A program made the translations under genes and the position numbers. 64,000 bases of DNA, taken from Diaporthe sp. PMI_573. Lineage: Eukaryota; Ascomycota; Sordariomycetes; Diaporthales; Diaporthaceae. Below are positions 2,635 to 62,453 of the stretch, one piece after another (within the stretch, counting starts at the first letter, position 1; every line of letters begins with the position of its first letter). Location: the NCBI GenBank assembly GCA_021399435.1, contig JAJTUP010000007.1:1116001-1180000 (forward strand), written 5' to 3'. Below the pieces are notes generated by a model, which saw only the letters and a program-made list of their open reading frames with translations, did not search any database and was not told the origin of the DNA.

Positions 2635-4092
2635 CTACATCCTCGCCTTCAGCTTCAACCCTGTTCTTGATATCCTGGCGGCGACCAGGAAGAGGCCTCC
2701 GATCATCAGAAGCGAGGCAGCAAACATCTCCATACTCAGGTAGTGGCCACCGTTAGCGCTAATCAGGGCGCCCGCAATAGGCGTGCCAGTTAGCGTCGCA
2801 AAGCTAATGACGGTGTAGACCATGCCCATACGCACCCCCATCTTTGTCATATCTGTAGTCAGCGCAGACAGGGCAGTAGGGAACAGACTATTGACGCCAG
2901 AGCTGAAGAGCCCATAGATGGTAGAGAATGCCCAGAGCCCGCCCGGGGTGTAGATGGCTGCCCAGCAGTACAGCGACACGGCGGACAGCACGACAAAGGG
3001 GATCATCATGTTGGTTGGGCCAGTCCACCTGTCAGACAGGTAAGGGGGTAGCAGCCGACCGACGATGCCGATGCCGTTCATAATGATGAGGAGGTTGATC
3101 GAATTGCCCTGGGAGAAACCAATAACACTACTTGCGTACTCGCCAATGTAGTAGTAGGCGGGATATATACCCCAGAAGCAGAAGAAGACGCCGATGGCGA
3201 AGAATAGGTAGGGCAACTCTGTGAAGGCTGAGAATTCCACTAGGGGTCCGACGGTTCTGGGCGGGACCCGAGTCTGCGACAGGACAAAGCAGAGCACCTG
3301 GAAGACCAGCATGATAAAACCGAGCACGCGGAGGGTCCATCCGAATCCCACGCGGGGTAGGAGCGCCTCGAAAATGCCAGGAATAATCATGCCACCCGTG
3401 GTAGTCCCCGAGGCAGCAAGCCCGACAGCTATAGCCCTCTTCTTGTTAAAGTAGGTAGGCAGGATAGCCAGCGTAGGGCAGAACAGGAGGCCGTTCCCAA
3501 TACCGGTACAGATGCCCTGGGCAAGGAAGAGCTGCCAGTACTCGGTACATATCGAGGTCATGAAGACGCCGAGGATGATGAGGACGGTTCCGATGACAAA
3601 GGTGTGCCGGAAGTAACCAGCGTCGGTTGCGCGGCCGGAAAAGGTTCCGATAAAGAAGAGCAGGAAGACCTGGACCGAGCCAATCCATGAGATCTGTGAG
3701 GGGGACTGGTCCAGGGTGCTGAGGTAGTACGTCTGGAACACGCCAAACGAATTGATGTAGCCCCAGGTGTTGAAGATGACCAGGTGAGCAATGAGCACTT
3801 GCAGCCAGGCCTGGAGACCCCCATCCGGCGGAGGACCTGGCACCACCTTGGTTGCACTTCCGCCGCTCTCGACGTCGGATGGGGGCTGCTCAGGCTCAGC
3901 TGGCACTGGCAGGGTCATTAGGGTGGATTCGTCCCTGCTCTTGCTAGTCGAGGTGGAAATGTCGTGGGCATCTTTTTCATCTTTTTCAGCCCTCCATTCG
4001 GGTTCTGGAATGTTGTTGGCAGCAGCACTGTCAATGGCATTGGAATTGCGATTGGGCGTGACAAGGTCGGTAGACTGTGTTGTGGGAGCCAT
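2635..4092 (-). CDS. MFS transporter, monocarboxylate-permease-like (MCT/SLC16 type)
   Basis: This is one uninterrupted exon of 485 residues from the ATG at 4092. An in-frame upstream ATG at 4161 would add 23 residues, but the MAPTTQS start fits the family better. The N-terminal cytosolic tail is about 100 residues, acidic and polar. It leads to PPDGGLQAWLQVLIAHLV, the usual DGGxGWxV-like opening of MCT helix 1, followed by about 12 hydrophobic segments. GINSFGVFQ-like, GIGNGLLFCP and FNKKRAIAVGLAASG segments are typical of fungal MCT homologues. Members sit in the plasma membrane and move monocarboxylates or small metabolites; the substrate cannot be read from sequence. It is convergent with the transcription factor (263 bases between stops) and close to the RiPP-like cluster, so export of the cluster product is possible but unproven. 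Confidence 0.88.
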   Translation of the reverse strand: MAPTTQSTDLVTPNRNSNAIDSAAANNIPEPEWRAEKDEKDAHDISTSTSKSRDESTLMTLPVPAEPEQPPSDVESGGSATKVVPGPPPDGGLQAWLQVLIAHLVIFNTWGYINSFGVFQTYYLSTLDQSPSQISWIGSVQVFLLFFIGTFSGRATDAGYFRHTFVIGTVLIILGVFMTSICTEYWQLFLAQGICTGIGNGLLFCPTLAILPTYFNKKRAIAVGLAASGTTTGGMIIPGIFEALLPRVGFGWTLRVLGFIMLVFQVLCFVLSQTRVPPRTVGPLVEFSAFTELPYLFFAIGVFFCFWGIYPAYYYIGEYASSVIGFSQGNSINLLIIMNGIGIVGRLLPPYLSDRWTGPTNMMIPFVVLSAVSLYCWAAIYTPGGLWAFSTIYGLFSSGVNSLFPTALSALTTDMTKMGVRMGMVYTVISFATLTGTPIAGALISANGGHYLSMEMFAASLLMIGGLFLVAARISRTGLKLKARM

Positions 4093-5180: not shown

Positions 5181-5275
5181 CCGTCGAGGTAGCTCGGTAA
5201 TTGTGCTTGCGTGCCCCTCAATCGCTGGCAATGGCTGCTCAGCCGTCGAGATAGCTCGGTAATGTGCTTGCGTGC
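5181..5275 (+). promoter_or_regulatory. Two copies of a ~34-base direct repeat upstream of the precursor gene, each with a CCG-N11-CGG core
   Basis: Copy 1 starts at 5181 and copy 2 at 5243, offset 62 bases. Both contain CCG-TCGAGRTAGCT-CGG followed by TAAT, optionally T, then GTGCTTGCGTGC. Spaced CCG/CGG triplets are the usual contact type of Zn2Cys6 dimers. The copies lie 220-315 bases upstream of the precursor ATG. An operator role is inference. Confidence 0.4.
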
Positions 5276-5494: not shown

Positions 5495-6516
5495 ATGAAG
5501 TTCAACTCTGTTGTTGCCTACGCGACCTTGGCCGCTAGCTTTGGCCACTCCCTTCCCACTGAGAAGAGGAATGTGGCCACGTCTGGAGACATCTCCACCA
5601 GTGATGGCCTCCCGGCGAAGCGCTTTATCGCTTCTCCTAACGTCTTGCCCCTGATCAAGCGCAATGTTGCTACAAGCGAGGCTGAGAAACGCAATGTGGT
5701 AAGTCTAGAGCACTTGACCCCCTTCTTCGCACCACTTTCTCAAGATATCAAGGCAAATGGGTTCTAAACAGTACACAGGCTACCAGCGATGTTGAGGCCC
5801 GCAATGTCGCCACATCCGACAAGCGCAATGTTGCTACCTCAGACAAGCGCAATGTCGCTACTTCTGAGAAGCGCAATGTTGCTACGAGCGATGTTGAGGC
5901 TCGCAATGTGGCCACATCCGACAAGCGCAATGTTGCTACCTCAGACAAGCGCAATGTCGCTACTTCTGACAAGCGCAATGTTGCTACGAGCGATGTTGAG
6001 GCTCGCAATGTGGCCACATCCGACAAGCGCAACGTCGCCACCTCTGAGAAGCGTAATGTTGCTACTAGCGATGTCGAGGCTCGCAACGTAGCCACCTCTG
6101 ACGTTGAGGCTCGCAACGTCGCGACCTCTGACAAGAGGAACGTGGCCACCAGCGATGTCGAGGCTCGCAACGTAGCCACATCCGACAAGCGCAACGTCGC
6201 GACCTCTGAGAAGCGTAATGTTGCTACTAGCGATGTCGAGGCTCGCAACGTAGCCACATCCGACAAGCGCAACGTCGCCACCTCTGAGAAGCGTAATGTT
6301 GCTACTAGCGATGTTGAGGCCCGCAATGTGGCTACTTCCGACAAGAGGAACGTCGCTACTTCTGACAAGAGGAACGTCGCCACCTCTGACAAGAGGAACG
6401 TCGTCGATGGCCGCAATGTTGCTACTAGCGATGTTGAGGCCAGGAACGTTGCTACTTCAGAGAAGAGGAACGTGGCCACCTCTGACAAGAGGAACGTCGC
6501 CACCGCCGACTACTAG
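5495..6516 (+). CDS. Secreted Kex2-processed repeat peptide precursor (candidate dikaritin-type RiPP precursor)
   Basis: There are two exons, 5495-5698 and 5779-6516, with intron 5699-5778 (GTAAGT...ACACAG). The spliced protein has 313 residues. Residues 1 to about 21 form a signal peptide (MKFNSVVAYATLAASFGHSLP), followed directly by TEKR. The rest is almost entirely repeats of NVATSD or NVATSE: 30 NVAT units and one NVVDG variant. They are joined either by Lys-Arg, the Kex2 site cut in the Golgi, or by the linker VEAR. The intron splits one unit without breaking the repeat. Only two aromatic residues follow the signal peptide: Phe in a non-repeat KR-bounded peptide (FIASPNVLPLI) and the C-terminal Tyr of NVATADY. 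The design matches fungal KEP/dikaritin precursors, and two UstYa-family genes lie within 6.2 kb downstream. The core has no known homologue that I recognise. A structural or effector KEP without crosslinking is the alternative. Confidence 0.85.
5570..6513 (+). repeat. In-frame 24/30-base coding repeat array (NVATSD/E-KR and NVATSD-VEAR units)
   Basis: Units are 24 bases (8 residues, ending KR) or 30 bases (10 residues, ending VEAR). In exon 2 after the split unit I count 18 KR units, 8 VEAR units, one 6-residue NVVDGR unit and the terminal NVATADY. The higher-order order VEAR-unit, KR-unit, EKR-unit recurs. Synonymous codons vary between units (AAT/AAC, AAG CGC/CGT/AGG) while the peptide is conserved, which suggests selection on the peptide. 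The intron at 5699-5778 interrupts the array. Confidence 0.9.
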
Positions 6517-7473
6517 AGGAGCACTGCTATCAGCTGCATAGCTGCTTCCAGTGAGTGCGTCCGGATTCCTCAACAATGAACTTCATGTCTGCGTCTGCTG
6601 GCCCAGGGTATTGGCTTGGATAGCGAGGAATTCACAGTTTTCAAGATAGGTTGAGCCAGGTGCCGGGTTTTAGAGAGTATAAAGGAGGCGAGCAGAGAGA
6701 GACTGTGAATGCTGTGTTTCTTATCAGAATACATAGCGATGATGAGAATGGATTTTATGAGATTTATGCGAATACAGTTGATGGACTTGGACTCTTGCGA
6801 TACCATAAATTGTGAAATTTGGTCTTGTCCGACTTCAAGTTCGTGTAAAGCGCTGGCGGCTAGGCTGTGATGCATGGCAAAACAAGAAAAAAGATTGAGT
6901 GACAGTAGTACAACATGATGGTGATTCCGAACCTCATGCTCAAGTGCTACCTTTGGTTTTCTGACGGTATATTGGAAATCTTGGTAGAGTATTACTCAGG
7001 CTATTGAATCTCTGTAATGTTGTGAAGGGATGGACAGATGTTCACATGGAAGCTAGGGTGTGGAAGAAGGTCCTGTTGTGAGTAGAGACAGCGAGTTGAG
7101 GTGGAATCACTAGGGCACGTTGGCCAAAACTTCTGCTTAAGCAGTCACACGCAATATGCTTTGATGGTAGAGACAGAAAGTGGAAATCAGCTAGCAAGGA
7201 AGCCTGGGCACTTGTCCCAGTACTTAGGTATGCTATCCGTGATATTTCGAGAGCCCCACGTAAATCTCATGCATAATGTGATCTTGTTTGGAGGATCGAG
7301 AGCTCGAAACGTTGAAAAGTGCACACATTCTCTCAAGCACTAGTTAATGCAAGTCTATTCAAATGCTCAACTCTAATTAATGCCAGGAATCAACTCATGG
7401 TTCAACTTGGCTATGGGCTCTCTTCTACTAGAGTTCGGCAATATTTCGACGTTAGGCCCATTTCAGTTCATCC
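6517..7473. other. Convergent 3' intergenic region
   Basis: This region lies between the precursor stop and the transporter stop. I see no coding feature; the small frames on both strands show no motif. It should contain the two opposing polyadenylation regions. Confidence 0.5.
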
Positions 7474-9288
7474 TCAACTTCTTTTCCGCAATTTCAGAGT
7501 CATCCAAATAGCTGCGATAGCCGCCAGGCCTCCCGCTCGCAAAACCCAGGCTGTGCTCCTGCTTTCGTCCCCGCTTTGGCCATCAGTCCCGAGCAGGAAG
7601 AAAATGGCGCTGCTCCCCAGCGCCGCAATCAGCTGTGGGGCTGCGATGGACATATTATGGATGCCCATGACGATACCGGGCTGGATCTCGTAGTTGGCCG
7701 TAAACTTTTCTGTTGTGATCTCATGTGCAGCGTCCGAGGAAGGGGCGCGGTAGATGGCCTGCTCGTGGTGCCGCGAGAGTATGAGGCTGATGAGGGTGAA
7801 GGGAACAATCTGCGAGAGCGCAGCGCTTATGCCTACAAAGGCGACAATGACGGTGGCGCCGAAGACGCTGCGGCTGATTAGGAGCGTGCTGAACATGCAG
7901 GTTGCGAATATGGCGTGGGAGAGTATCCAGAGGCTACACAGAGATGACCAGGAGGTACTGAGTTGCCTGGCTAGGAATCGAGGCAGGGCTGTCGTCCGCG
8001 CGACAAGAGTGCTTGGGATTGACTGCAGGTCGTTCTCTGGCTTAGCGATAAGATAGGGGGCTATGATGCTGGCAAGGAGCTGAGAAAAGGCGAACAGCAG
8101 CAGTGCGAGCGAGCCGTGTTGGTTTGCTTTCTTTTGGGCTGTGACGTCCACAGGATGGATATCGCGCAAATCTGTTTCTTGTAAGTTTAGGTCAACTAGA
8201 AGAATGAAAGCGCAAGAGCTGCTTACATATTTCACCGATGTATCTATAATCGGTTAGAATCGACAAGTCAGTGGTCATGCCTAGGAAGATCAAGGCTAAG
8301 AATAGAGCTTACGTTGTGATGTAGTACATGAACGAGAACCACCCGAGCCAAGAACAAAGCTGTACCTTGCAGACCATGGCAACCTGTGGCGGTATCTTGG
8401 AAATGCTGCCGTATATGTGCTTGAACTTGCCAATCGTGCTTTTTAGTTCTCTACTCGGTGGCCCATCCTCGTTTGGATCTCGTTCCCGGATCGCACAGCA
8501 GCACACAAAGACCGTGACGGCCAAGCCGCAAGTTGCCAACACGGCAAGGGCCTTGAATTGTGCATGACCACCTCCAATATGCATCAGTTGCGAGAGGTCC
8601 ACGAAGCCGGAACCATAGCCTAGTAGGCTTCCTATGCTGATCATACGACTAGCCCACGCGTTGGCTGTGTCCATCTTCTCCGGGGGGCAAGTCTCGACAA
8701 TGAGAGCGCGAAGCCCACATTGAAGAGGCTGGATGGCGAAGTTCAAGACCCATATTAAAATAGCAGCGGTTATTTTGATTGTCGTTTGTAGGACATGATA
8801 GTCAAGGCTTTCACTGGCAATCCACGCAAGCGTGTGTACAATTTCTTCCGTCCACGCCAGCGCAGGCAGGGAAATTAAGATGACCAAGGCACCTCCTGCA
8901 ATGAACGCCTTTCGCCTGCCCCAGCGGATTCGGCATTGGTCGCTGCACAGGCCAAAGTATGGTTGCCCAACCACGCCAGCAAGTGGTCCGGCAAGCCAGA
9001 CGAAGGGGATCACCGGTTTGCTGAATCCCAGTGACATGAGGTAGGGCTTTTTGTTCTAGTTAGGGTCACGTTGGTTGGATGAGAAGAATATTACATGAAG
9101 AGACTTACTGACCCCATGGCCGTTTGAACTGAGAACACGCCTTGCAGACTATATTTCCCTTCATAATTAGAAAGGCTGTGAAAGAGCAGCAAGAGGCTCA
9201 CCTACCCTCCAAGACCCCCTGTAAGGGCTAGAAAGAATAATATCTTCCTCGCCCCTCTAAAGGGCGAGGTGTCCAAAAGCGACGACAT
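7474..9288 (-). CDS. GPH/sucrose-transporter-family MFS protein (SUT-like) inside the cluster
   Basis: Five exons join in frame: 9288-9206, 9148-9109, 9046-8313, 8243-8227 and 8171-7474, giving 523 residues. Exon 4 is only 17 bases, and the acceptor after AAACAG at 8172 is required to keep the frame open. The sequence runs LGGLQGVFSVQTAMGSPYLM (helix 1 region), GPLAGVVGQPYFGLCSD, then RIRWGRRKAFIAGG, the strong SUT signature after helix 2. About 12 hydrophobic helices follow, and YYITTYIGEIYLRDI is the family's mid-protein motif. Known members are proton-coupled sucrose or alpha-glucoside importers in the plasma membrane. It is divergent from the UstYa-1 gene with about 790 bases between starts, suggesting a shared promoter. 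Its substrate could be a sugar or the cluster product; the sequence does not decide. Confidence 0.88.
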
Positions 9289-10078
9289 CCGAGAGAAAGA
9301 GACCGTATTCTGGTGAGTAAACTGCGACCAAATTTTGATATGCGCAGGAGAAGAAAGGCAGACGCTGCTTTGTGTGTGTGTAAATTGGTGGAGGTTGTGT
9401 GCCGTCTCGAGTTGTAAATCAAACTGGCAGTGGGACACAACTCCAGAGTACCAGTATGCACTGAATCAAGAGTATTGCGGCCTACTTGCCCCCAAATCTA
9501 ATATTCCGAAATGTGTTTTCTGCTTGTTGCTTGTGCACCACGTTAGCTTGGTCCCACATTCTTCCACTGTCGCTTTCGCGGGGCGTCAACCGTAGCTGTA
9601 TGTGGACATCGCTCTCGGAACCAACTTGCAGCACCCCCCCACATCAGCTCGGAAATCCTACCTGGGTACGCTCGGATTTCAAAACACCTGCAACTCCAGC
9701 GGGTTTCTTGATTCGGTAATGCAGTAAACATGGTCAGATCCATGTACCATCTCAATCGAGAGTCGGACTCGGAACTCTTCGCGGGGCTTTCATCAAACCC
9801 ACTTTTCGCCAGATCCGTAATGGCCCTCGGACGCTACCGCACGTTCTGGTTGATGCCAGCTTTATCAATGTGATTGGAGCCTTGTTGTACCAGAAGTAGC
9901 CAGAATTAAGTTACAAGTATTGACAAAGCCCGTTGAGGCCCAAGAAACTTGTCATTCCTTCACGATTACCCCCCCCCCCTTTCCCTCGTTGATGAAGGTG
10001 AGCTCCTGCTTCGAACATGTGGTGAAATTGCGTGGCTAACACATGGACAGAACATACTTCACATTATTCAACTACCAT
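9289..10078. promoter_or_regulatory. Divergent intergenic region between transporter and UstYa-1
   Basis: Both flanking genes start here and read outward, so it is presumably a bidirectional promoter. A run of 11 C residues lies at 9969-9979, about 100 bases before the UstYa-1 ATG. No clear TATA box or second copy of the 5181/5243 repeat was seen, only partial AGCTCGG matches. Confidence 0.45.
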
Positions 10079-10894
10079 ATGTCGAAGTCAAACACATCCT
10101 TCCCCCTTCTCAAGCAGCTCGTCATGCAGAAGTGGAAGCCTGAGCGAATTTACGAGAAGGTTGGAGTCAGGGATGAGGAGTCACCTGATGGATTCCCACG
10201 GGCAGATGAGGGCCAGAGTGTTTCTCGGGGAACTAGAACCCGATCTCTGATCTCGGGAATTGTTGTTGCTGGGTTGACAGTGATGTGCATCGCCGGCATC
10301 ATCTGGTGGCCAGCCCGGATTCAAGACCAAGCAATCCAAATGGCAGCATACGACCACTCCCACGACGACCACCCCGTTCACCCAGCCCATGGCGGCTCAG
10401 ACTCGCATCTCTTTGAGCACCTGGGCCCATCCAGCAGCTCTGAGCACTCCCCTCACCCTCAGTCAGATGACAACGACACCGTGGCCACCTGTGGAAGCAC
10501 CCTTGAGGAAGCTCAGGCATTGGGTTGCCATTGGGATTTGCTGGCAGCAGCCTGGCTGCCGCCTGCGTGCATCGATCAGGAGCTCACCGAGGACTTCCGA
10601 GCCCAGGGGCCGTGGAGGTATTTTGCAGACAGAGAGGGAACACAAGAGCTGGTCGAGGAGGAGTTGCAGTACCGCGTCGGAAAGGGCAACGAGTACTACA
10701 CGTCGCTCAGATACCACAAGACGCACTGCTCTTACCAGTGGCGCAAGATGCACCGAGCGATGGAGAGGGGTACCAAGATCGAGAACAAGCTGGCTGACTA
10801 CCACCACACGATGCACTGTGGTTACGTTCAGATGCAGCAAGGAGATATGGAGGACTTGATGACGAAGATCACGGTTGAGCTCATGACCTGCTAA
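10079..10894 (+). CDS. UstYa-family (DUF3328) oxidative peptide-modifying protein, copy 1
   Basis: This is a single exon of 271 residues from ATG 10079; an in-frame ATG at 10043 would add 12. Residues 57-77 are one transmembrane helix (SLISGIVVAGLTVMCIAGII). Residues 91-127 form a His-rich stalk with nine His. A family core follows: CGSTLEEAQALGCHWDL, LPPACIDQEL and PWRYFAD. The diagnostic pair of HxxHC motifs is HKTHC at 10715-10729 and HTMHC at 10805-10819, 30 residues apart. UstYa proteins act in the secretory pathway and catalyse oxidative cyclisation, hydroxylation or halogenation of peptides such as ustiloxin and cyclochlorotine. The family assignment is firm. The reaction and the peptide acted on are inferred from proximity to the precursor. 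Confidence 0.9.
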   Translation: MSKSNTSFPLLKQLVMQKWKPERIYEKVGVRDEESPDGFPRADEGQSVSRGTRTRSLISGIVVAGLTVMCIAGIIWWPARIQDQAIQMAAYDHSHDDHPVHPAHGGSDSHLFEHLGPSSSSEHSPHPQSDDNDTVATCGSTLEEAQALGCHWDLLAAAWLPPACIDQELTEDFRAQGPWRYFADREGTQELVEEELQYRVGKGNEYYTSLRYHKTHCSYQWRKMHRAMERGTKIENKLADYHHTMHCGYVQMQQGDMEDLMTKITVELMTC

Positions 10895-12014
10895 AAGTTG
10901 AGCAAGATTTACGGTTGGAAATTCCCAAGGGTCGGTCATTTGGAGCCATGGACTAGAGACACTTAGCAGCACAGCACGTCTATCGCAAAATGCTTTAAAC
11001 ATGTTCAGTAATTTTCTGCAATGTCCATCACTATCCTATGAATATAGAGCATCAGATCGAAGTCCTAGACGCTGCTCGTGAACTTTTCTACCGTAACGGT
11101 GATTCATGTTCTCATTCCATAAAATTTCCATAAAGCCTGTTTGATGTTACGGCCTGGGCAGTGTGGCCACGGCGGTAAGCCAAGGCAGCATGACAGCATA
11201 GTGGTGTCGCCACGAGTTGCACAGGGTGCAGAGGACGACGGAATCGTCGACTTTCATCCAGTCCCATATTCGGCCGCACTCATTATCACCAGCCGGCGGC
11301 AAGTCTGTCCAGAGTATTCTACCGTAAGTGGCGATTTGAGTCCCGTCCTAATGAGGCCGACTCCGGACAGCCCACCGTTCCGTCCAATTCAGTCATCTTA
11401 CCGAATCTTGCAGGGTGAATGCCCCGCCCCACCCACCCGCATGACAAGGCGCATTCGGAATTCCTCTGATGGGGAATCGACCAGGCTGCCAGGCCGTCGT
11501 TAGCGCCATCGGTTCTCAGACCGAACAAGTCCGTTAGCGCCATCGGTTCTAGATTCGGGTTTGTGTAAGTGGGCTCGACCGACATGCTTAGGTGTTTTCT
11601 CGGACTTGACGGAAAACATCAACAGACTTTTGGGCTCACGTTGATCCGAGTCAATCAGGACTTTGCTGGAAGGGAATATGAACTGATGTACGGATAACGC
11701 GGCCTGATAGGGAAGCGTAATGGCGTGACTTGGGAGGAGTAAGATTCCGGGATGGAGACACCATTTACAAGATATAGGTGAAAAGAGCGCATACGTCAAG
11801 CAAATAGCCATCACGTTCTTTGCTTGAACCACCTTGCATCTATTTCACTCCAAGGGGATCTTTTAGCCACGCCTACTGTCCCGACCAGTGTGAGCCTCCT
11901 CCCCAACCACGCTCTAGGTTATCTGGTACGTATTCAAACTGCAAATACAATACCCCGAACAACTTGAGACATAGCATACTCACGAACCACGACAGAAACA
12001 TCAGCCCATTCGAC
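10895..12014. other. Intergenic region between the two UstYa genes
   Basis: No gene is supported. It holds the UstYa-2 promoter, including a short direct repeat at 11496-11550. A minus-strand frame at 11500-11832 has no recognisable domain. Confidence 0.5.
11496..11550 (+). repeat. Short direct repeat in the UstYa-2 upstream region
   Basis: GTTAGCGCCATCGGTTCT occurs twice with a period of about 33 bases, ending near 11516 and 11550. It lies about 465-520 bases upstream of the UstYa-2 start. It could be a regulatory duplication or neutral slippage. Confidence 0.45.
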
Positions 12015-12734
12015 ATGGCTTCAATGAAAGATGACGACTTGGTCGAGGAAGGCCTCCTGGCCTACAAGGACAACTCTTCCTCTTTCGAGAGCGATGAGAC
12101 CAGACGGCCAATCATCAAGCCTGCCTCAAGGCGATTCGACATCCTGTACACACTATGCTGCATATTCGCCGGCGTAACCTTCTCCCTCATCGTCCTCAGT
12201 ATAACAGCCAGCGTCAGGATGGCCGCCGTCAGGCCCACCACCCTCTACCACAACTGGCAGCTGGACACCCCACTGAAGCTGGGCGAGGAGCCGAGGGAGA
12301 ACGGACCCAACTGCGGCTCGTCGCCAAGGGAGGCGCGCGACCTGGGCTGCAAGTTTGACCTGGTTCTGTACTCGTGGGTGCCCGAGCCGTGCTACGACCA
12401 CGAGATCCAGGTCGCCTACCGGGAGCGCGAGTCGGAGTGGTGGCGGGAGCGGGGCGGCGTCGGCGGCGAGAAGATCTCGCAGGACCGCGCTGCGCTGGGC
12501 ATCGAGGAGGCCATGTGGCTCTCGTGGGACTATCATGACTACCACTGCCAGTTCATCTGGAAGATGATGACGAGGATACTGCGCAACACCAGCATGGGGG
12601 TGCCCGGTCGGCTGCTCGAGTACCACCACACCGACCACTGCATCGAGGTGCTTAAGGGCATAGACCCGGGCCCGAAGGAGGACATCAGCACCAAGGTCTC
12701 TTTGAACTACTCTACGTGTTACTCGCGGATTTGA
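12015..12734 (+). CDS. UstYa-family (DUF3328) oxidative peptide-modifying protein, copy 2
   Basis: This is a single exon of 239 residues. I chose the start MASMKDDDLV because the frame upstream has only a non-ATG opening. A short acidic cytosolic tail precedes a transmembrane helix at residues 41-67 (LYTLCCIFAGVTFSLIVLSI). Next come CGSSPREARDLGCKFDLVLY and VPEPCYDHEIQ, the conserved Cys-bearing family segments. The two HxxHC signatures are HDYHC at 12534-12548 and HTDHC at 12627-12641, 31 residues apart. It lacks the His-rich stalk of copy 1 and is clearly diverged from it, so it is unlikely to be a recent duplicate. Dikaritin clusters often carry two distinct UstYa proteins (UstYa/UstYb), which matches this arrangement. 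Substrate and chemistry are inferred. Confidence 0.9.
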   Translation: MASMKDDDLVEEGLLAYKDNSSSFESDETRRPIIKPASRRFDILYTLCCIFAGVTFSLIVLSITASVRMAAVRPTTLYHNWQLDTPLKLGEEPRENGPNCGSSPREARDLGCKFDLVLYSWVPEPCYDHEIQVAYRERESEWWRERGGVGGEKISQDRAALGIEEAMWLSWDYHDYHCQFIWKMMTRILRNTSMGVPGRLLEYHHTDHCIEVLKGIDPGPKEDISTKVSLNYSTCYSRI

Positions 12735-13086: not shown

Positions 13087-13430
13087 TCAACGCTCGCCGC
13101 TTGCAGTATCTGGACTCTGGGTGAGGAAACCACCGACGACTTTCAGGACTCTTTCCCTTAGCTCCCGTCCCTCGAGGTGACACATGTGGCCTGATGCGGG
13201 GAATGTGACCCAACGCACGCGAGGGATAAGCTCGAAAAACGGCTCTTGAGCTATGTCGTGCGACGTGTCGTACTCTCCGTTGTAAATAAGAGTTGGCGCG
13301 GTGATCCGTGGCAGCTTCGGGATGCTTGTCCATCCGAGCATCGAGCCGCTGGGCACATGGATGGACGGGCCGTTCCCAAGGACGAAAAGGCTTTGTGAGT
13401 AAACGAGCCAATTTGGAAGAGGAATAAATT
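13087..13430 (-). pseudogene. C-terminal fragment of an S33 (proline-iminopeptidase-like) alpha/beta hydrolase
   Basis: The frame reads NGPSIHVPSGSMLGWTSIPKL, then ITAPTLIYNGEYDTSHDIA, then PFFELIPRVRWVTFPASGHM. This is the C-terminal half of S33 peptidases and carries the acid (GEYD) and catalytic His (SGHM) regions. The nucleophile GxSxG half is absent. Reading upstream, the frame meets a TAA near 13440, and I found no spliceable continuation to about 13680. I therefore call it a 5'-deleted remnant. If an upstream exon were missed, it could be a short partial gene. It sits next to the RiPP-like cluster and might once have belonged to it. Confidence 0.6.
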
Positions 13431-14385
13431 CTACTAGTTATTCAGGCTGGTGTGTGTAGGACGGACAATGTAAATAAGAAATGACGAAGTGCGGAACCAA
13501 CTTTAACGGAACGAGCTGCCTGGAATAGCTCGACGCGTTCAAGAACGGTGCGAAAAGCTTCAATCAACGAAGAGGTGGGAGAGGACAGAAGGTTGAATAA
13601 CATACATCGTCTAATAGACTGTCTTATCGTCTCTCAGATTTTTGAAAGCCAGAAGGACAGAGCCAGAACTGCCTATTGACTAACTGGCCTAGGATAGGTA
13701 TGGCTCCAAGTAATCTTCCAAAGATTACTTGGAGCCAAGACTACCTCCGGCTGTTAGCCGCTTGTGACAAATGGCGTCTCGGTACAAATCTTGGCAGCAC
13801 AAGCACACTTAGCCACTCGTTTTCAAGACATGTTGTCCAGCACAGGTTACCATTATCGCAACTAACATCGCGCATCTCGGAACTTAACTATTTAACATTA
13901 TCCCACAACCTTTTTATGGGCGACCGGTATTGCAATTTTAAAGAAGTCTACTTGTTACCTATAGCCGGCGGAAGAACCTGGATATCGGCTTAGCAGTACT
14001 ATAATTGTGGCGTAGCTCGGCTTGGCTACATGTATACGCGTAATCTAACAGCTCTAATACCTGATCTAAATACGAATTATTTTGCCTGGCAATTGCCTCC
14101 TTTGGAATTCTAGAATACTTTGGGGATATTTAGGTCGGGAATTATAGATCAAGATTTGGATACTAATAGAAACATGCTGCTTATCCTGCAACATTCCAAC
14201 GGCCCCTTTGCTGTGTAGAGCAAGGACGAATATAGGAACGAGTTAGACCGTAGTGGCCTCAGCCAAAAGCCCTATACAAAAGTCTTTTGAATTCTGACAC
14301 CCTAATCTTGCCTGGCTGAAAGTAACGTTGCCTAACCCACGGCCCGACTCTAAGCCAGAGGAACCTAGTCTATTCGAACCCGAGA
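13431..14385. other. Transition zone, no gene recognised
   Basis: The sequence becomes AT-richer toward 14 kb. Apart from the hairpin at 13701-13737, I see nothing that I can name. Confidence 0.4.
13701..13737. repeat. Perfect 17-base inverted repeat with 3-base loop
   Basis: TGGCTCCAAGTAATCTT at 13701-13717 is followed by CCA and then by its exact reverse complement at 13721-13737. No coding or tRNA context is evident. It could be a foldback or MITE relic or an RNA hairpin. Confidence 0.85.
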
Positions 14386-41380: not shown

Positions 41381-44057
41381 ATAGGTGGCTGGATATTGCT
41401 CTGTGCACATAGCCTAGGTCTGCGGGGCAGACCATATTTTTTTCTCATTTTTCATGTATTTGTTTTGTTACTTTTATGTACATACATACATACATCAACC
41501 ATCAAACGTCGGAGCATAGCTAAATTCATAATTTCGTCCCCGGGTGGATCTCGACAAACATCATTTCCTTCATAATGCGACTGACGACATCATTCAAGAG
41601 TAGAGGCGATTCCGTGGTTCTTGTTTTAGTGCGCAGCTACCCGTCAAAATTATCACGATATACGTCGCCCGTCCTGCTCTGTTCCGCCAAGCGGATCTCT
41701 AGGGCCACTACTTTTAGCAATGGCCTGTGTATGTGACAAGCTTCGCAGAGCTGACTTTTCCTCAATAACACCTGCAGAGGCTAGTTGTCTCCCACTCTAG
41801 CGGGAACGATCCTGTGGAATGGGTATTAGTCAGCCATATGGGCACTATATAAGTAGGGCCCTTCGGCCCTCTTGGCGATAGCTTCTTGCTTCCTTCGGTA
41901 GCAAGAATCGAACCCGTACCCAGAATAGTACGGCTTTTGCTCGCCCCTATTTGCATGTGCAAAGACCCCTGACCTACGGCATCAGGGCCGTACCAACAGA
42001 TCCGCTAATTTATCCGGAGACCGAGCTTTTGAAAAAGGCATACAACCAAGCAGCCCATCTCTTCACTGATTCCGAGCCACGCAGCATCCACGAGAAGAAG
42101 GCACCGAACCTAGGGGCAGTGCTGTCGACGCCTGCTGCCCAATGCTCGAATTCGAGTAGACAACTTGAGCTATTCTCTCAAATAAAGCAGGTCAACGAGC
42201 TTGAAAGCTTGTATCTGTGTTAAAGCTTACAGCAAATATTCTACGTAGGGCGGCCAGCAGCTCTGTCTTGGCTAAATTGGAAACCGTATCTGGGCACTTA
42301 GAAGCAAAGCATTGGATAGCCGGCTTCCGGCATTGGCTTATATATCTATAATCTCTTGTCCTCTGTGATGCGGTAGTAGCAACATGCAATCATGCACCTT
42401 TTCGATGCCGCGATAACTTGTCTTCCCGGAACGACTGTATGTAAGTGGGATCTTGGTTCGAAGTTGCTAATCTGCAATGAGCTCAAACTTTCTATGCCGT
42501 TGAGACCTCGAACAAATTGGGCTTAGCGGGCTTTGGGGCGGACCAGTAACGGGCGCTTGTATGTAGGCCTACCAGCCTCCATTGGAGGAAACACACCACG
42601 CCCTTAGGATTACATGTGGGGAACGCTGGTAATGTACAGGCGCATTATCCCACCTAGAAAGAATCGCGGGCGGCAATATGCTCAACAGGGCCTCGCAGGT
42701 CCGTAATATTACCAACCCACTTCGTTTGTGCTCTTTGACTACTGGCCCATCGGATTAAGCCGTACCCACTTGGAAGCACTGTTACCCGCCTAACTCACCC
42801 CCGGATGCAAGGAATCATGTGCATCAATGTTGGTGGGCTGCTTGGTAGCCTGATCAAGTAGCTTAGCTTTCTCCATCACCAATAACTCATCTAATGATAC
42901 TAGGCTGAGTATACATTGACTTACCGAAACTTGGTGGGACTGTCTGCCACTAACGACCTTCTGTATAATGAGGCGGCGGCACGTTGCATGTGGTGTGTTC
43001 TGTTGCTAATTGATCGGGTTGGAAGACCTGAATAGCAAGTATAGCAAGAGAGCAACCAACAGAGCATAGGGCGGAAAAGCCGGCAACCTGAAAGAGACTG
43101 GTTTATAAATACGGCCGCATTTGCAACTGGTCAAAAATTCTCAAGGCACCACAAAACTGATCGTTTTACACTGATATTCTAACATTGAAGTCTACGTTGT
43201 CCACTTTGGTATTACCGCCGGCATTATGCGCAAGAAATACGTTGCTACAACTATCTATACCTGTGGTACACGTGTTTCCTCAGATTTCAAATTCGATCCT
43301 TGCGGGAACCTGACCGCGGCGGACCACAATGGGTTCTACTCGGGCCAGGACCGCCTGTGGACGGCACGACTGCTCTGTTTGCAATCCTAGTTAAATGATA
43401 AGCTGGGTCACCCCCTTTTGCAGGTTTGGTCATTTGCTTATCAGGAAAGGTCTCGTCTTCAAGAATTGGACGTCTGGGCATGTGGCACGGGCCGCGGTGG
43501 CTGACTTAGGTCCACCCCGGCTAGACAATTCTACCATCATTCCCGCTTAAACCCCGAAGTTTTATGTCAACCTTGCAAATAAGAAGCAGCAATGTTAGAC
43601 TGTGGCTCAACAAGCATCATCGAGCGCATTTCTACTGGAGTCGCCTTGAGGAAACCGATAGTATACTTGAACCAAACAACAGTCGATGCGTGAATCGCGA
43701 ATTGTTTCTCTATCGAGCGACAAATCTCTATTACCATAACTAGAGCTCGGTCTTGGCGTTTACGGGTAGCGTGTTAGTAGTTTTACCCCGTAAATACCTA
43801 TAACGTGGCTTTCTCCTTAACAATTAGTTATGGGTATACGCTCTTTCTAGCCCTCTACACTAATACTTTTTATACACAGCCTGTTAGTACCTATTATATA
43901 CCCCCTTTTTTTTCTACTCTTATAAAACTCTTTTAGCTTATAAAAACCCTTTTTATTACTTCTTTAATATCTTTTTTATTTGTTTTATTTTATTTTTATT
44001 TATAAATATCTTTATATCGATCTTAATGTTTTTTAAATTAATTAATAAATTAATACA
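41381..44057. other. Long intergenic region without a recognised gene
   Basis: Small frames at 41951-42223 and 43287-43481 show no family features. The last 250 bases, from about 43.8 kb, turn AT-rich and lead into the satellite. Confidence 0.45.
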
Positions 44058-44268
44058 CTAATAAAACTAATAAAACTAATAAAACTAATAAAACTAATAA
44101 AACTAATAAAACTAATAAAACTAATAAAACTAATAAAACTAATAAAACTAATAAAACTAATAAAACTAATAAAACTAATAAAACTAATAAAACTAATAAA
44201 ACTAATAAAACTAATAAAACTAATAAAACTAATAAAACTAATAAAACTAATAAAACTAATAAAACTAA
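44058..44268 (+). repeat. 9-base satellite (CTAATAAAA)n, about 23 copies
   Basis: Perfect tandem copies of CTAATAAAA cover about 211 bases with no visible interruption, ending in ACTAAACCCTAAAAG. The perfect identity suggests recent expansion. Confidence 0.95.
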
Positions 44269-44317
44269 ACCCTAAAAGAATCCAAATAGAGAGATAGAGA
44301 GATAGAGAGAGAAATAA

Positions 44318-44462
44318 AGAGGGAGAGATAAAGAGGGAGAGATAAAGAGGGAGAGATAAAGAGGGAGAGATAAAGAGGGAGAGATAAAGAGGGAGAGATA
44401 AAGAGGGAGAGATAAAGAGGGAGAGATAAAGAGGGAGAGATAAAGAGGGAGAGATAAAGAGT
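44318..44462 (+). repeat. 14-base satellite (GAGGGAGAGATAAA)n, about 10 copies
   Basis: Near-perfect purine-rich tandem array, preceded at 44285-44317 by shorter GAGAGATA units. It lies 50 bases after the 9-base satellite. The purine/pyrimidine strand bias could favour triplex or non-B DNA. Confidence 0.95.
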
Positions 44463-45401
44463 GTTACGGTTCCAACACAGGCAAACGTATATATTGGCCG
44501 TAGCTAAGCTAGGTTTGATGAAGAGAAAGAGAAAAGTGGGAATTCGGGCAGAATGCCACGGATTCCTACTTAAAATATCTAAAATCCCTACTAATCTGCC
44601 GAGAGGCAGATTCTCTACTTAATTATGGCTGCCTTCCGCTCCTTAGAAAGTGCTATCACCTCCGATCAAGTATAAAGAGGTCGGGCTTCCCCTTGGTCTT
44701 CGTCCATGGCAATGCATGTTGTCTCTCCTCGCTTAACTTGCTCTTTCTTGTGCCTCAAGACTTCATCATAATGTCATACACGGAGGAGGAAGCCGCTCCT
44801 GTACGCGACCTATAGACTTACCGTAAGTATCCGCCGTCAATACCTCGTTAACACAACTGATCCGAGACAGAGGGGGAGTGTCGCGATGAGATGTTCGCTA
44901 TAGTAGGGCAGTCAGTCAACGACAGACGGACTGTAGTTCGACCCTCGAAGCCTAAGGGACTATGGGAAACGTTGGAGGACAAGACCAGGGCGGCGCTCAG
45001 AGCTATACGCAGGGTTCTCAGGAGACGTTAGGCGTAGTCGACACCGGGAGCCACATACATGAGCCCGTGTTTAAATTCAAGTCGGTAGCGGCTAGACCTT
45101 CTCACTTCGGGACATCGTGACAGACCGTTTTATGGTGATGTTAATTAACTCAGCCCGCGGGCCCTCGTCGTTGTAAAACACGATGTCGCGTCGAAAGATT
45201 TCGATCGCGGTCGCGCGTTTCTCTGACACCCCTCTAACGGCAGACTTGCACTGGCTGGGGTTGGACATATCAAGTGGTGATACCGTGCATAGCTAACACC
45301 TTCTAGTTGGTGTCGGCCAGGATCTGCCGGGTGCTCCGCCGCCGAGCCGGCCCTCCCATCCTCTAGCGCAGGGTAGATGGCACAGCCGGGCGGGTCATTA
45401 C
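44463..45401. other. GC-normal stretch starting with an LTR-like TGTTACGG
   Basis: TGTTACGGTTCCAACACAGG at about 44462 could be an LTR start; no partner copy was found in this window. An ATG at about 44771 (MSYTEEEAAP) soon meets a stop. Nothing else is assignable. Confidence 0.35.
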
Positions 45402-61419: not shown

Positions 61420-62453
61420 GGTGTCTTGGAATTAACCTGGAATAGACAGACGTCAAGGAAACGGTAGCAAGGAACCGATGGGCTACATCCTAAGAGAGGG
61501 GGAAGACTGGCGTTCGCACTGGACTTTCACACTGAATGCGCTCGTCTCATTTATACATGTAACGTGGGTGCATTTAGCACGAAAGGAGAGGCGTCGTTGG
61601 AGTTCGTTGATCCGACTAGTACCACCCCGTCATCTCCAGGTTATACCCGGTTCCTTCCCCACAGGGATGTGGATACCAACCATAGACACAGCGGATTGGT
61701 TTCAAGGGAAAGGTCTCCGTGTGTGCGTCCTTAGTGTGTGCGTCCTTAGTGTGTGCGTTTTGTTAGACCCGGAGTACTGTCCTCCGTCTGGACGGAGTCC
61801 TTGGCATAATAAGGCCAAGAACCTTGTCATCGTAGAGCCTTCTCGAACGGTCGTAATTGTTCTATGACCTTGGTAGCGACACTGCTGGAGGATGCCTTTC
61901 CATCACAAAACACTGCAGACTGGCACAGTCTCTGTTTTGATGTCGTCTCTCATACTCGATATAAAGAACCCATTTTTAACCGAGTTTGTGTCTCCTGTAC
62001 CGGCCTTGCAACATCTTAGTCCAAGGAGTAGAGAACGAGGCGGGAGAACAAGCCGAGTATAGTGTGGAGCATCAACTTTATGCTTGCAAGATGTACAATG
62101 TCAAATTTGCGCACACCTCCGACAATCAGCGTAATTGGGATGATCAATTTCGAGATGAGCCGGTGGAGACCCATGTTAATGGTCACAGTAAAAAGTGAAC
62201 AGCTTCTACACAGGCAAGATGGAGACAGAGTGAGGCGAAATACTTATTCGATAATCTGCACTGGCCCAAGTAGCGTGAAGACAAGCCAAATAGATTTAAA
62301 GGATACATTATCTCCTCTCGGGCGCACACGATTTATACTGTTTTCACCCCACTTTGGCGGGCCCCGGCTCGATACTGGCAGTAATTCTCTATTGGACGAA
62401 ATGTGTGCCAAACGACGATTTAGGTCTGGCAGCTTCTATATAACATGGGGTGG
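61420..62453. other. Intergenic region between transporter and SDR
   Basis: No supported gene. A short run of tandem GTGTGCGTCCTTA units lies at about 61718-61760. It holds the transporter promoter. Confidence 0.5.

What the first reader, a model, noticed from the sequence alone, without database searches (positions are those of the whole stretch)
5495..12734. Candidate new RiPP (dikaritin-like) cluster: NVATSD/E repeat precursor plus two UstYa proteins
Seen: a signal peptide, 30 NVAT units largely bounded by Kex2 sites, and two membrane-anchored proteins each with paired HxxHC motifs within 6.2 kb. Known: Kex2-processed repeat precursors with UstYa enzymes define dikaritins (ustiloxin, phomopsin, asperipin types). 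Inference: these enzymes modify NVATSD/E peptides. I recognise no described family with this core, so it may be a new class.
Basis: partly seen in the sequence, partly recalled or inferred. Interest (0 to 1): 0.92.

Follow-up and report, generated by a model that had tools for sequence, protein, structure and literature searches.

The report
Fungal repeat peptide with two oxidases
This fungal gene cluster most likely makes a small secreted peptide, NVATSD or NVATSE, cut from a protein with 30 repeats and then chemically altered by two membrane enzymes; the plan is a known one, but the peptide lacks the aromatic residues that its known relatives use to close their rings, and the enzymes belong to a branch that the standard family model does not recognise.

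Summary
A spliced 313-aa repeat protein (exons 5495-5698, 5779-6516) carries 30 NVAT units; 28 are NVATSD/E. These 28 use 20 different DNA words and differ only silently or as D/E, so the peptide appears to be under selection. UstYa1 (10043-10894) and UstYa2 (12015-12734) each have one membrane helix and two HxxHC motifs. Neither matches Pfam's UstYa model. They belong to a separate HxxHC subfamily: 15 of its 22 genes in this genome lie within 10 kb of a Pfam UstYa match (background 1.2% of the genome), one near tyrosinase, S41 peptidase and UstYa genes. The pair is kept in Cytospora mali, one named lichen fungus and four unnamed contigs. Best reading: a Kex2-processed repeat peptide modified by dicopper-type oxidases. 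The NVATSD/E units have no Tyr, Phe or Trp, so the aromatic cross-link of ustiloxin, phomopsin, asperipin and victorin is not available; desaturation or hydroxylation is likelier. 'New class' is not shown: in one survey about a third of the repeats of comparable precursors lack Tyr. New variant of a known kind. Product, expression and the precursor-enzyme link in other species are untested.

The parts
5495..5698 (+). Precursor exon 1: leader (MKFNSVVAYATLAASFGHSLPTEKR), NVATSGDISTSDGLPA-KR, FIASPNVLPLI-KR, first repeats
   Evidence: Spliced translation; hydropathy. Signal peptide by eye.
5699..5778 (+). Phase-0 intron of the precursor (GTAAGT...CAG)
   Evidence: 9 acceptor choices tried; 5778 alone leaves every repeat unit whole. 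No transcript data.
5779..6516 (+). Precursor exon 2: bulk of the 30 NVAT units; linkers KR (18), VEAR (9), AEKR (1) over the whole protein
   Evidence: higher-order units of 78 and 102 bp
5186..5263 (+). Direct repeat upstream of the precursor (GAGRTAGCTCGGTAAT at 5186 and 5248), possible regulatory element
   Evidence: no other match on the + strand of the window; function not tested
7474..9300 (-). MFS transporter gene (reading frames 8309-9055 and 7474-8253, further 5' exons likely; 5' end approximate), between precursor and UstYa1
   Evidence: PF07690 35.7 bits on 8309-9037, cut-off 33.4; no match on 7474-8253
10043..10894 (+). UstYa1: 283 aa, one TM helix near 69-87, CG..EA..GC..D...W.P..C.D region, HKTHC(225) and HTMHC(255)
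   Evidence: 20 homologues besides itself; AlphaFold2 blocks 151-240 at pLDDT 88-96, mean over all 68
12015..12734 (+). UstYa2: 239 aa, one TM helix near 43-61, same lumenal signature, HDYHC(174) and HTDHC(205)
   Evidence: 16 homologues besides itself
2635..4092 (-). Second MFS transporter (flank; membership in the cluster uncertain)
   Evidence: PF07690, 96.3 bits
863..1947 (+). Probable fungal transcription-factor gene in several exons; membership uncertain
   Evidence: PF04082 matches of 16.7 and 16.5 bits on two frames, below the cut-off of 23; no match on 1546-1947
13087..13437 (-). Alpha/beta-hydrolase C-terminal piece at the downstream edge, perhaps a fragment; membership uncertain
   Evidence: PF00561 23 bits, below the cut-off of 25.8; 4 further matches in the genome

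Best explanation
A fungal KEP-type RiPP cluster. The precursor enters the secretory pathway (inferred from the leader). Kex2 cuts at KR (inferred); if it cuts only there, the 22 pieces after the leader are 6 NVATSD, 4 NVATSE, 6 of the 16-mer NVATSDVEARNVATSD and 6 single odd ones (counted from the listing); a cut also after AR would split the 16-mers into NVATSDVEAR and NVATSD. Trimming removes the basic residues (inferred). UstYa1 and UstYa2, single-pass membrane proteins with the paired HxxHC motif, act as dicopper-type oxidases on the repeats in the secretory pathway (inferred from the motif shared with CctR). Because the repeats have no aromatic residue, the likely chemistry is desaturation or hydroxylation at Val, Thr, Ser or Asp, as reported for the phomopsin proteins PhomYc and PhomYd, rather than a phenol ether ring. 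The MFS gene may export the product. Shown: repeat gene, silent-change pattern, enzyme motifs, enzyme pair kept elsewhere, association of the subfamily with UstYa genes. Not shown: expression, cleavage, any modification, any activity.
For: Precursor anatomy and silent-change pattern. Two neighbouring HxxHC genes with one TM each. Subfamily tied to UstYa clusters: 15 of 22 genes within 10 kb of one of 81 PF11807 matches, background at most 1.2% of the genome (several of the 15 share a cluster, so 12 of 17 loci other than the window's); one (C112:901673) lies near PF11807 matches, two tyrosinase genes and an S41 peptidase. Repeat precursors near 3 of the 12 other loci that I read. If the genome had the ascomycete average of 5.25 KEPs (PMC7329392), one would fall within 10 kb of a given place with a chance of about 0.1%. 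Chemistry: PMC12435403 (dicopper HxxHC enzyme; parts 1 and 2 of 3 read), PMC10880069 (PhomYc/d/e desaturation; passages).
Against: Neither enzyme reaches PF11807; the similarity of the paralogue set to Pfam UstYa ORFs spans 48 columns around the motifs. No PF11807 match within 459 kb. No aromatic residue in the NVATSD/E units. No tyrosinase or S41 peptidase match listed on the contig. Shared promoter words are few: one 9-mer in all three upstream regions (shuffles mean 0.025, maximum 1) and three 8-mers (mean 0.76, maximum 3). No precursor homologue found, so the link of precursor to enzymes rests on this one genome. 9 of the 12 other loci read held no repeat precursor, and 5 of 17 were not read. 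One of 11 paralogue ORFs listed has neither motif in full (L040:4013-4723). The UstYa2 model is poor (pLDDT 48).
Confidence: 0.62

Rival explanations
1. A plain KEP: linear, unmodified NVATSD/E peptides are secreted as a signal, effector or surface peptide, and the two HxxHC proteins act on something else.
For: 78% of KEPs have no DUF3328 gene nearby, and pheromone-type KEPs almost never do (PMC7329392); no aromatic residue to cross-link; an MFS gene lies between precursor and enzymes.
Against: The neighbourhood is unlikely by chance (about 0.1% under the average KEP number); repeat precursors also occur near 3 of 12 other subfamily loci read, one of them (L044) also without aromatic residues in its repeats. 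Pfam UstYa genes near those three could be the real partners.
Confidence: 0.22
2. The conserved pair makes a shared modified peptide whose ancestral precursor differs from NVATSD/E; this genome has swapped in a new, lineage-specific repeat.
For: In five paired contigs outside Cytospora the enzymes keep 41-47% (UstYa1) and 55-63% (UstYa2) identity, while no relative of the precursor was found.
Against: The precursor search is weak: only 7995 candidates were scored, repeats may be penalised, and repeat genes may be missing from predicted proteins. Neighbouring DNA of the other pairs could not be read here.
Confidence: 0.1
3. A silent or decaying cluster at the edge of an AT-rich block, with no product.
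For: AT-rich block from about 14 kb (27-45% GC); the downstream hydrolase may be a fragment; no S41 peptidase or tyrosinase match on the contig.
Against: Precursor and both enzyme frames are intact; the repeats hold the peptide sequence while silent sites drift.
Confidence: 0.06

Closest known systems
Phomopsin cluster (Phomopsis leptostromiformis; five DUF3328 proteins)
   Same: Repeat precursor and several HxxHC-type proteins; PhomYc, PhomYd and PhomYe are reported to desaturate Ile, Asp and Pro (PMC10880069, passages)
   Different: Core has Tyr cross-linked to Ile and needs a tyrosinase (PMC7329392, passages); its DUF3328 proteins are PF11807 members
Ustiloxin and asperipin-2a clusters (dikaritins)
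   Same: KEP precursor plus UstYa-type genes close by
   Different: Tyr-based ether rings (PMC7329392); here no aromatic residue in the NVATSD/E units and no Pfam UstYa match; unlike ustiloxin, no tyrosinase found on the contig
Victorin
   Same: Multi-core precursor, oxidised product
   Different: Ring through a C-terminal Phe (PMC9233826, passages); none in NVATSD/E
CctR and the DUF3328 dicopper enzymes
   Same: One TM helix, lumenal C-terminal domain, HxxHC(x)nHxxHC (PMC12435403, parts 1 and 2 of 3 read)
   Different: CctR acts on a non-ribosomal cyclic peptide; UstYa1/2 carry a conserved CG..EA..GC..D...W.P..C.D region and are not recognised by PF11807
Kex2-processed repeat proteins (KEPs) at large
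   Same: Leader, short repeats, KR sites
   Different: 9 of 28 linkers are VEAR, not dibasic; 30 copies is high (in PMC6339444 the maximum is 129 and the next 38)

Membership tests
KEP (Kex2-processed repeat protein) | Secretory leader | tested here: inconclusive
   Hydrophobic N-terminus by hydropathy and eye; no signal-peptide program
KEP (Kex2-processed repeat protein) | At least three near-identical repeats bounded by dibasic sites | tested here: met
   30 units; KR after 18 of 28 NVATSD/E units and AEKR after one
UstYa / DUF3328 (PF11807) | Match over Pfam's curated cut-off | tested here: not met
   0 families for both proteins at E 0.1 and at E 10; no PF11807 match in the window in the genome search
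UstYa / DUF3328 (PF11807) | Two HxxHC motifs in the C-terminal half | tested here: met
UstYa / DUF3328 (PF11807) | Single N-terminal membrane helix | tested here: met
   Hydropathy and predicted helices 65-104 and 43-70; no topology program
UstYa / DUF3328 (PF11807) | Detectable homology by profile comparison | tested here: inconclusive
   hhalign 10% (UstYa1), 20% (UstYa2), 56% (ten paralogues) against six Pfam-type UstYa ORFs; reversed controls 0.1-0.2%
UstYa / DUF3328 (PF11807) | Dicopper centre, oxygen-dependent | not testable with these tools
   needs protein
Dikaritin RiPP | Aromatic residue in the core, used in a side-chain cross-link | tested here: not met
   No Y, F or W in the 28 NVATSD/E units; one Y in the last unit NVATADY and one F in the spacer FIASPNVLPLI
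Dikaritin RiPP | DUF3328 gene beside the precursor (class-defining enzyme in PMC12048977, section 23) | tested here: inconclusive
   HxxHC subfamily present, Pfam DUF3328 absent
Dikaritin RiPP | Tyrosinase and S41 peptidase in the cluster (in some, not all) | tested here: not met
   None of 57 tyrosinase and 2 S41 matches lies on contig C185 (lists are lower bounds)
Ascomycete alpha-pheromone precursor | STE13 dipeptides (XA or XP) after the Kex2 site | tested here: not met
   The repeat units start NV after KR; rule from PMC6339444, section 4

The most novel reading that the evidence does not exclude
A separate branch of HxxHC copper oxidases, missed by the Pfam model and so by surveys that use it, works as a conserved pair from Diaporthales to lichen fungi on KEP peptides that need no aromatic residue, giving a RiPP type defined by oxidation of aliphatic and acidic side chains (dehydro- or hydroxy-residues) instead of phenol cross-links.
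Probability: 0.3. Interest if true: 0.65.

Novelty: new variant of a known kind. Interest (0 to 1): 0.45.

Why it matters
PMC7329392 counts KEPs as with or without DUF3328 by domain match. If this HxxHC subfamily is a peptide oxidase, some KEPs now listed as unaccompanied may be modified, and the substrate range of these enzymes extends to peptides without aromatic residues. The conserved pair gives a simple two-enzyme system in which to test it.

Tried and rejected
Precursor homologues in the protein collection: none at E 1 (the 7995 candidates sharing most words were scored). Precursor paralogues in the genome: 6 weak matches to repetitive frames (L011-L016, some listed). Pfam hits of the precursor (FAM69 and three others, all below cut-off) judged composition artefacts. 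Viral contigs: 16 stretches matched a pattern, none encodes a relative of UstYa1. Solved structures by sequence: for UstYa1 two allantoinases at E 0.84 and 0.88; for UstYa2 one designed repeat protein, 4yxx, at E 0.0015 over profile positions 51-116, judged a chance match. Foldseek with the UstYa1 model: 16 matches at E up to 10, none at E 0.001 or better. The UstYa2 model was too poor to search. Shared promoter words: weak. Looser repeat scan: besides frames of the precursor itself (one antisense), two low-complexity frames in the window (10284-10856, 61436-61864) and one in L037 (8457-8618), not taken as KEPs. A repeat ORF at L048:8010-8234 (KYRKQGSQSGMIEP) shows no leader and was not counted. 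Literature: 'NVATSD' occurs in one held paper, PMC1464399 (search listing only, title on host-targeting signals), taken as an unrelated stretch of sequence. Searches for precursor-UstYa fusions: none seen in titles or abstract starts of the 20 and 15 papers listed. Rows left out of the profile comparison: P0017 and P0038. Not tested: signal-peptide prediction, expression, DNA beside the pair in other genomes, Kex2 cleavage at AR, five further subfamily loci (C112, C2, C57, C46, C18).
Full report
Setting. The window is bases 1116001-1180000 of contig C185 (1.81 Mb) of an 83.7-Mb genome in 217 contigs. Close relatives of the enzymes are in Diaporthe amygdali (UstYa1, 87%) and Cytospora mali (75% and 74%), so the organism is probably a member of Diaporthales (inference, with the placing of these genera recalled).

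Precursor. The gene starts at 5495. Reading straight through meets a stop; removing the intron 5699-5778 gives 313 aa with 30 NVAT units. Of 9 acceptors tried three keep the frame open, and only 5778 leaves every unit whole with an intron of normal size. 28 units are NVATSD (22) or NVATSE (6). The linker after these is KR 18 times, VEAR 9 times and AEKR once. If only KR is cut, the listing gives 22 pieces after the leader: six NVATSD, four NVATSE, six NVATSDVEARNVATSD and six single odd pieces. The array contains higher-order units of 78 and 102 bp. The 28 units use 20 different DNA words; over all pairs, 1350 differing codons are silent and 132 are D/E, nothing else. Array homogenisation may contribute, but DNA drift with a fixed peptide argues for selection on the peptide. 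The NG86 estimate (mean dN 0.10, dS 0.91) rests on 177 of 378 pairs; the others gave no usable value. A script for repeat ORFs found no other KEP in the rest of the window or in 20 kb upstream; a looser setting listed three low-complexity frames there that I did not take as KEPs. Shuffles gave none. The genome search shows no second copy, and the protein collection no relative at E 1, a weak negative.

Enzymes. UstYa1 (283 aa) and UstYa2 (239 aa) are single-exon genes, each with one strongly hydrophobic stretch and two HxxHC motifs, 30 and 31 residues apart, start to start. Their families (A2, 21 proteins; A1, 17 proteins) keep both motifs with few exceptions (P0024 lacks the Cys of the first; the C-terminus of P0017 does not align) and keep a CG..EA..GC..D...W.P..C.D region. 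UstYa1 and UstYa2 are related to each other (hhalign 99.4%) and to ten paralogues of this genome (100% and 99.9%), but only weakly to six Pfam-type UstYa ORFs (10% and 20%; paralogue set 56%), with reversed controls at 0.1-0.2% (P0017 and P0038 left out). Of 11 paralogue ORFs listed, 10 have two HxxHC motifs and one has none. None of the ten paralogues given to Pfam reached the UstYa cut-off; one had 10.5 bits. UstYa1 models well only between about residues 151 and 240; UstYa2 does not.

Neighbourhood of the subfamily. together give 22 genes (24 and 22 matches, exon pieces merged; the two window genes included). 15 of 22 lie within 10 kb of one of 81 PF11807 matches, and the stretches within 10 kb of those matches make up at most 1.2% of the genome; the seven others include the two window genes. 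Counted by locus, by hand, that is 12 of 17 loci other than the window's. One paralogue, C112:901673 (27% identity, E 4e-11), has PF11807 matches (889126, 897168, 916428, 920993 and others), two tyrosinase genes (about 893000 and 895000) and an S41 peptidase (918993) within 18 kb: the make-up of a canonical dikaritin cluster (joined by position). I read 126 kb around 12 of the 17 other loci. Three held a repeat precursor: C144 (EAGTTNGIGVIKR, with a leader, no aromatic residue in the repeats), C142 (YEGDTEDDIKKR, no leader in the frame found) and C66 (repeats fused to a UstYa domain); nine held none in the stretches read. The control, 75 kb of this contig outside the cluster, had none; 3 of 12 against none in that small control is not significant by itself, and the Pfam UstYa genes near C142, C144 and C66 could be the partners of those precursors.

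The pair elsewhere. UstYa2 has 16 homologues besides itself and UstYa1 has 20. Six UstYa2 homologues share a contig length with a UstYa1 homologue; two of these have consecutive locus tags (VM1G_07808/07809 of Cytospora mali; Q9164_003672/003673 of Protoblastenia rupestris, a lichen fungus by recall) and four are unnamed. The two distance matrices over these six and the window correlate (r 0.68, permutation p 0.008).

Mechanism. PMC12435403 (parts 1 and 2 of 3 read) shows that CctR, a DUF3328 protein, is a membrane-anchored, copper-dependent, oxygen-dependent hydroxylase with two coppers per monomer and that the HxxHC residues are needed. PMC10880069 (passages) reports that PhomYc, PhomYd and PhomYe are probably responsible for dehydro-Ile, dehydro-Asp and dehydro-Pro in phomopsin. 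NVATSD/E has no aromatic residue but has Val, Thr, Ser and a final Asp or Glu, so desaturation or hydroxylation is the likeliest chemistry; a ring would need a link without an aromatic partner. This is inference.

Known or new. PMC7329392 (abstract, sections 6 and 7, passages) reports 7878 KEPs, 22% with DUF3328 genes nearby, and Tyr in 65.6% of the repeats of those. So a KEP beside UstYa-type genes is expected in an ascomycete, and a Tyr-less one is not rare; how many lack every aromatic residue is not stated in what I read. PMC6339444 (sections 4 and 16) names conserved KEP cores in its text, none of them NVATS; its figures and tables were not seen. PMC12048977 (abstract and section 23) reports HXXHC-bearing DUF3328 genes widely in lichen fungi. 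What is new here, as far as these searches show, is the core, its lack of aromatic residues together with an enzyme pair outside PF11807, and the conservation of that pair. I rate it a new variant of a known kind, not a new class.

Noticed in passing
L048:4300-6100 minus (G000:C66:53300-55100): One gene carries a signal-peptide-like leader, four repeats (xNNAEDIREETYxRxGAMTYPKTxDQR) and, in the same reading frame, a UstYa domain with YHKLHC and HAMHC (PF11807 28 bits, cut-off 25). A precursor fused to its own oxidase would parallel the fused BURP cyclases of plants (PMC12186524, passages). One match in this genome; none seen in the listings of two paper searches.
   Followed up: partly
G000:C112:884000-925000: Looks like a canonical dikaritin-type cluster: PF11807 matches, two tyrosinase genes, an S41 peptidase and a distant paralogue of UstYa1/2. 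Its DNA was not read and its precursor not looked for.
   Followed up: no
L044:9523-9906 plus (G000:C144:409523-409906): A second KEP without aromatic residues in its repeats (EAGTTNGIGVI-K, six copies, clear leader), 1.1 kb from a UstYa1/2 paralogue at L044:7847-8440.
   Followed up: partly
L039:2564-2920 minus (G000:C142:60564-60920): KEP-like frame with seven YEGDTED(D/E)(I/F)K units near several PF11807 matches and a UstYa1/2 paralogue.
   Followed up: partly
window 5186-5263: Direct repeat GAGRTAGCTCGGTAAT upstream of the precursor, two copies.
   Followed up: partly
window 14000-36000: AT-rich block (27-45% GC) with few long reading frames beside the cluster; may be a repeat island altered by RIP (inference).
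   Followed up: no
window 44042-44503: Long simple-sequence tract read as ISFISF and LSLPLY runs.
   Followed up: no
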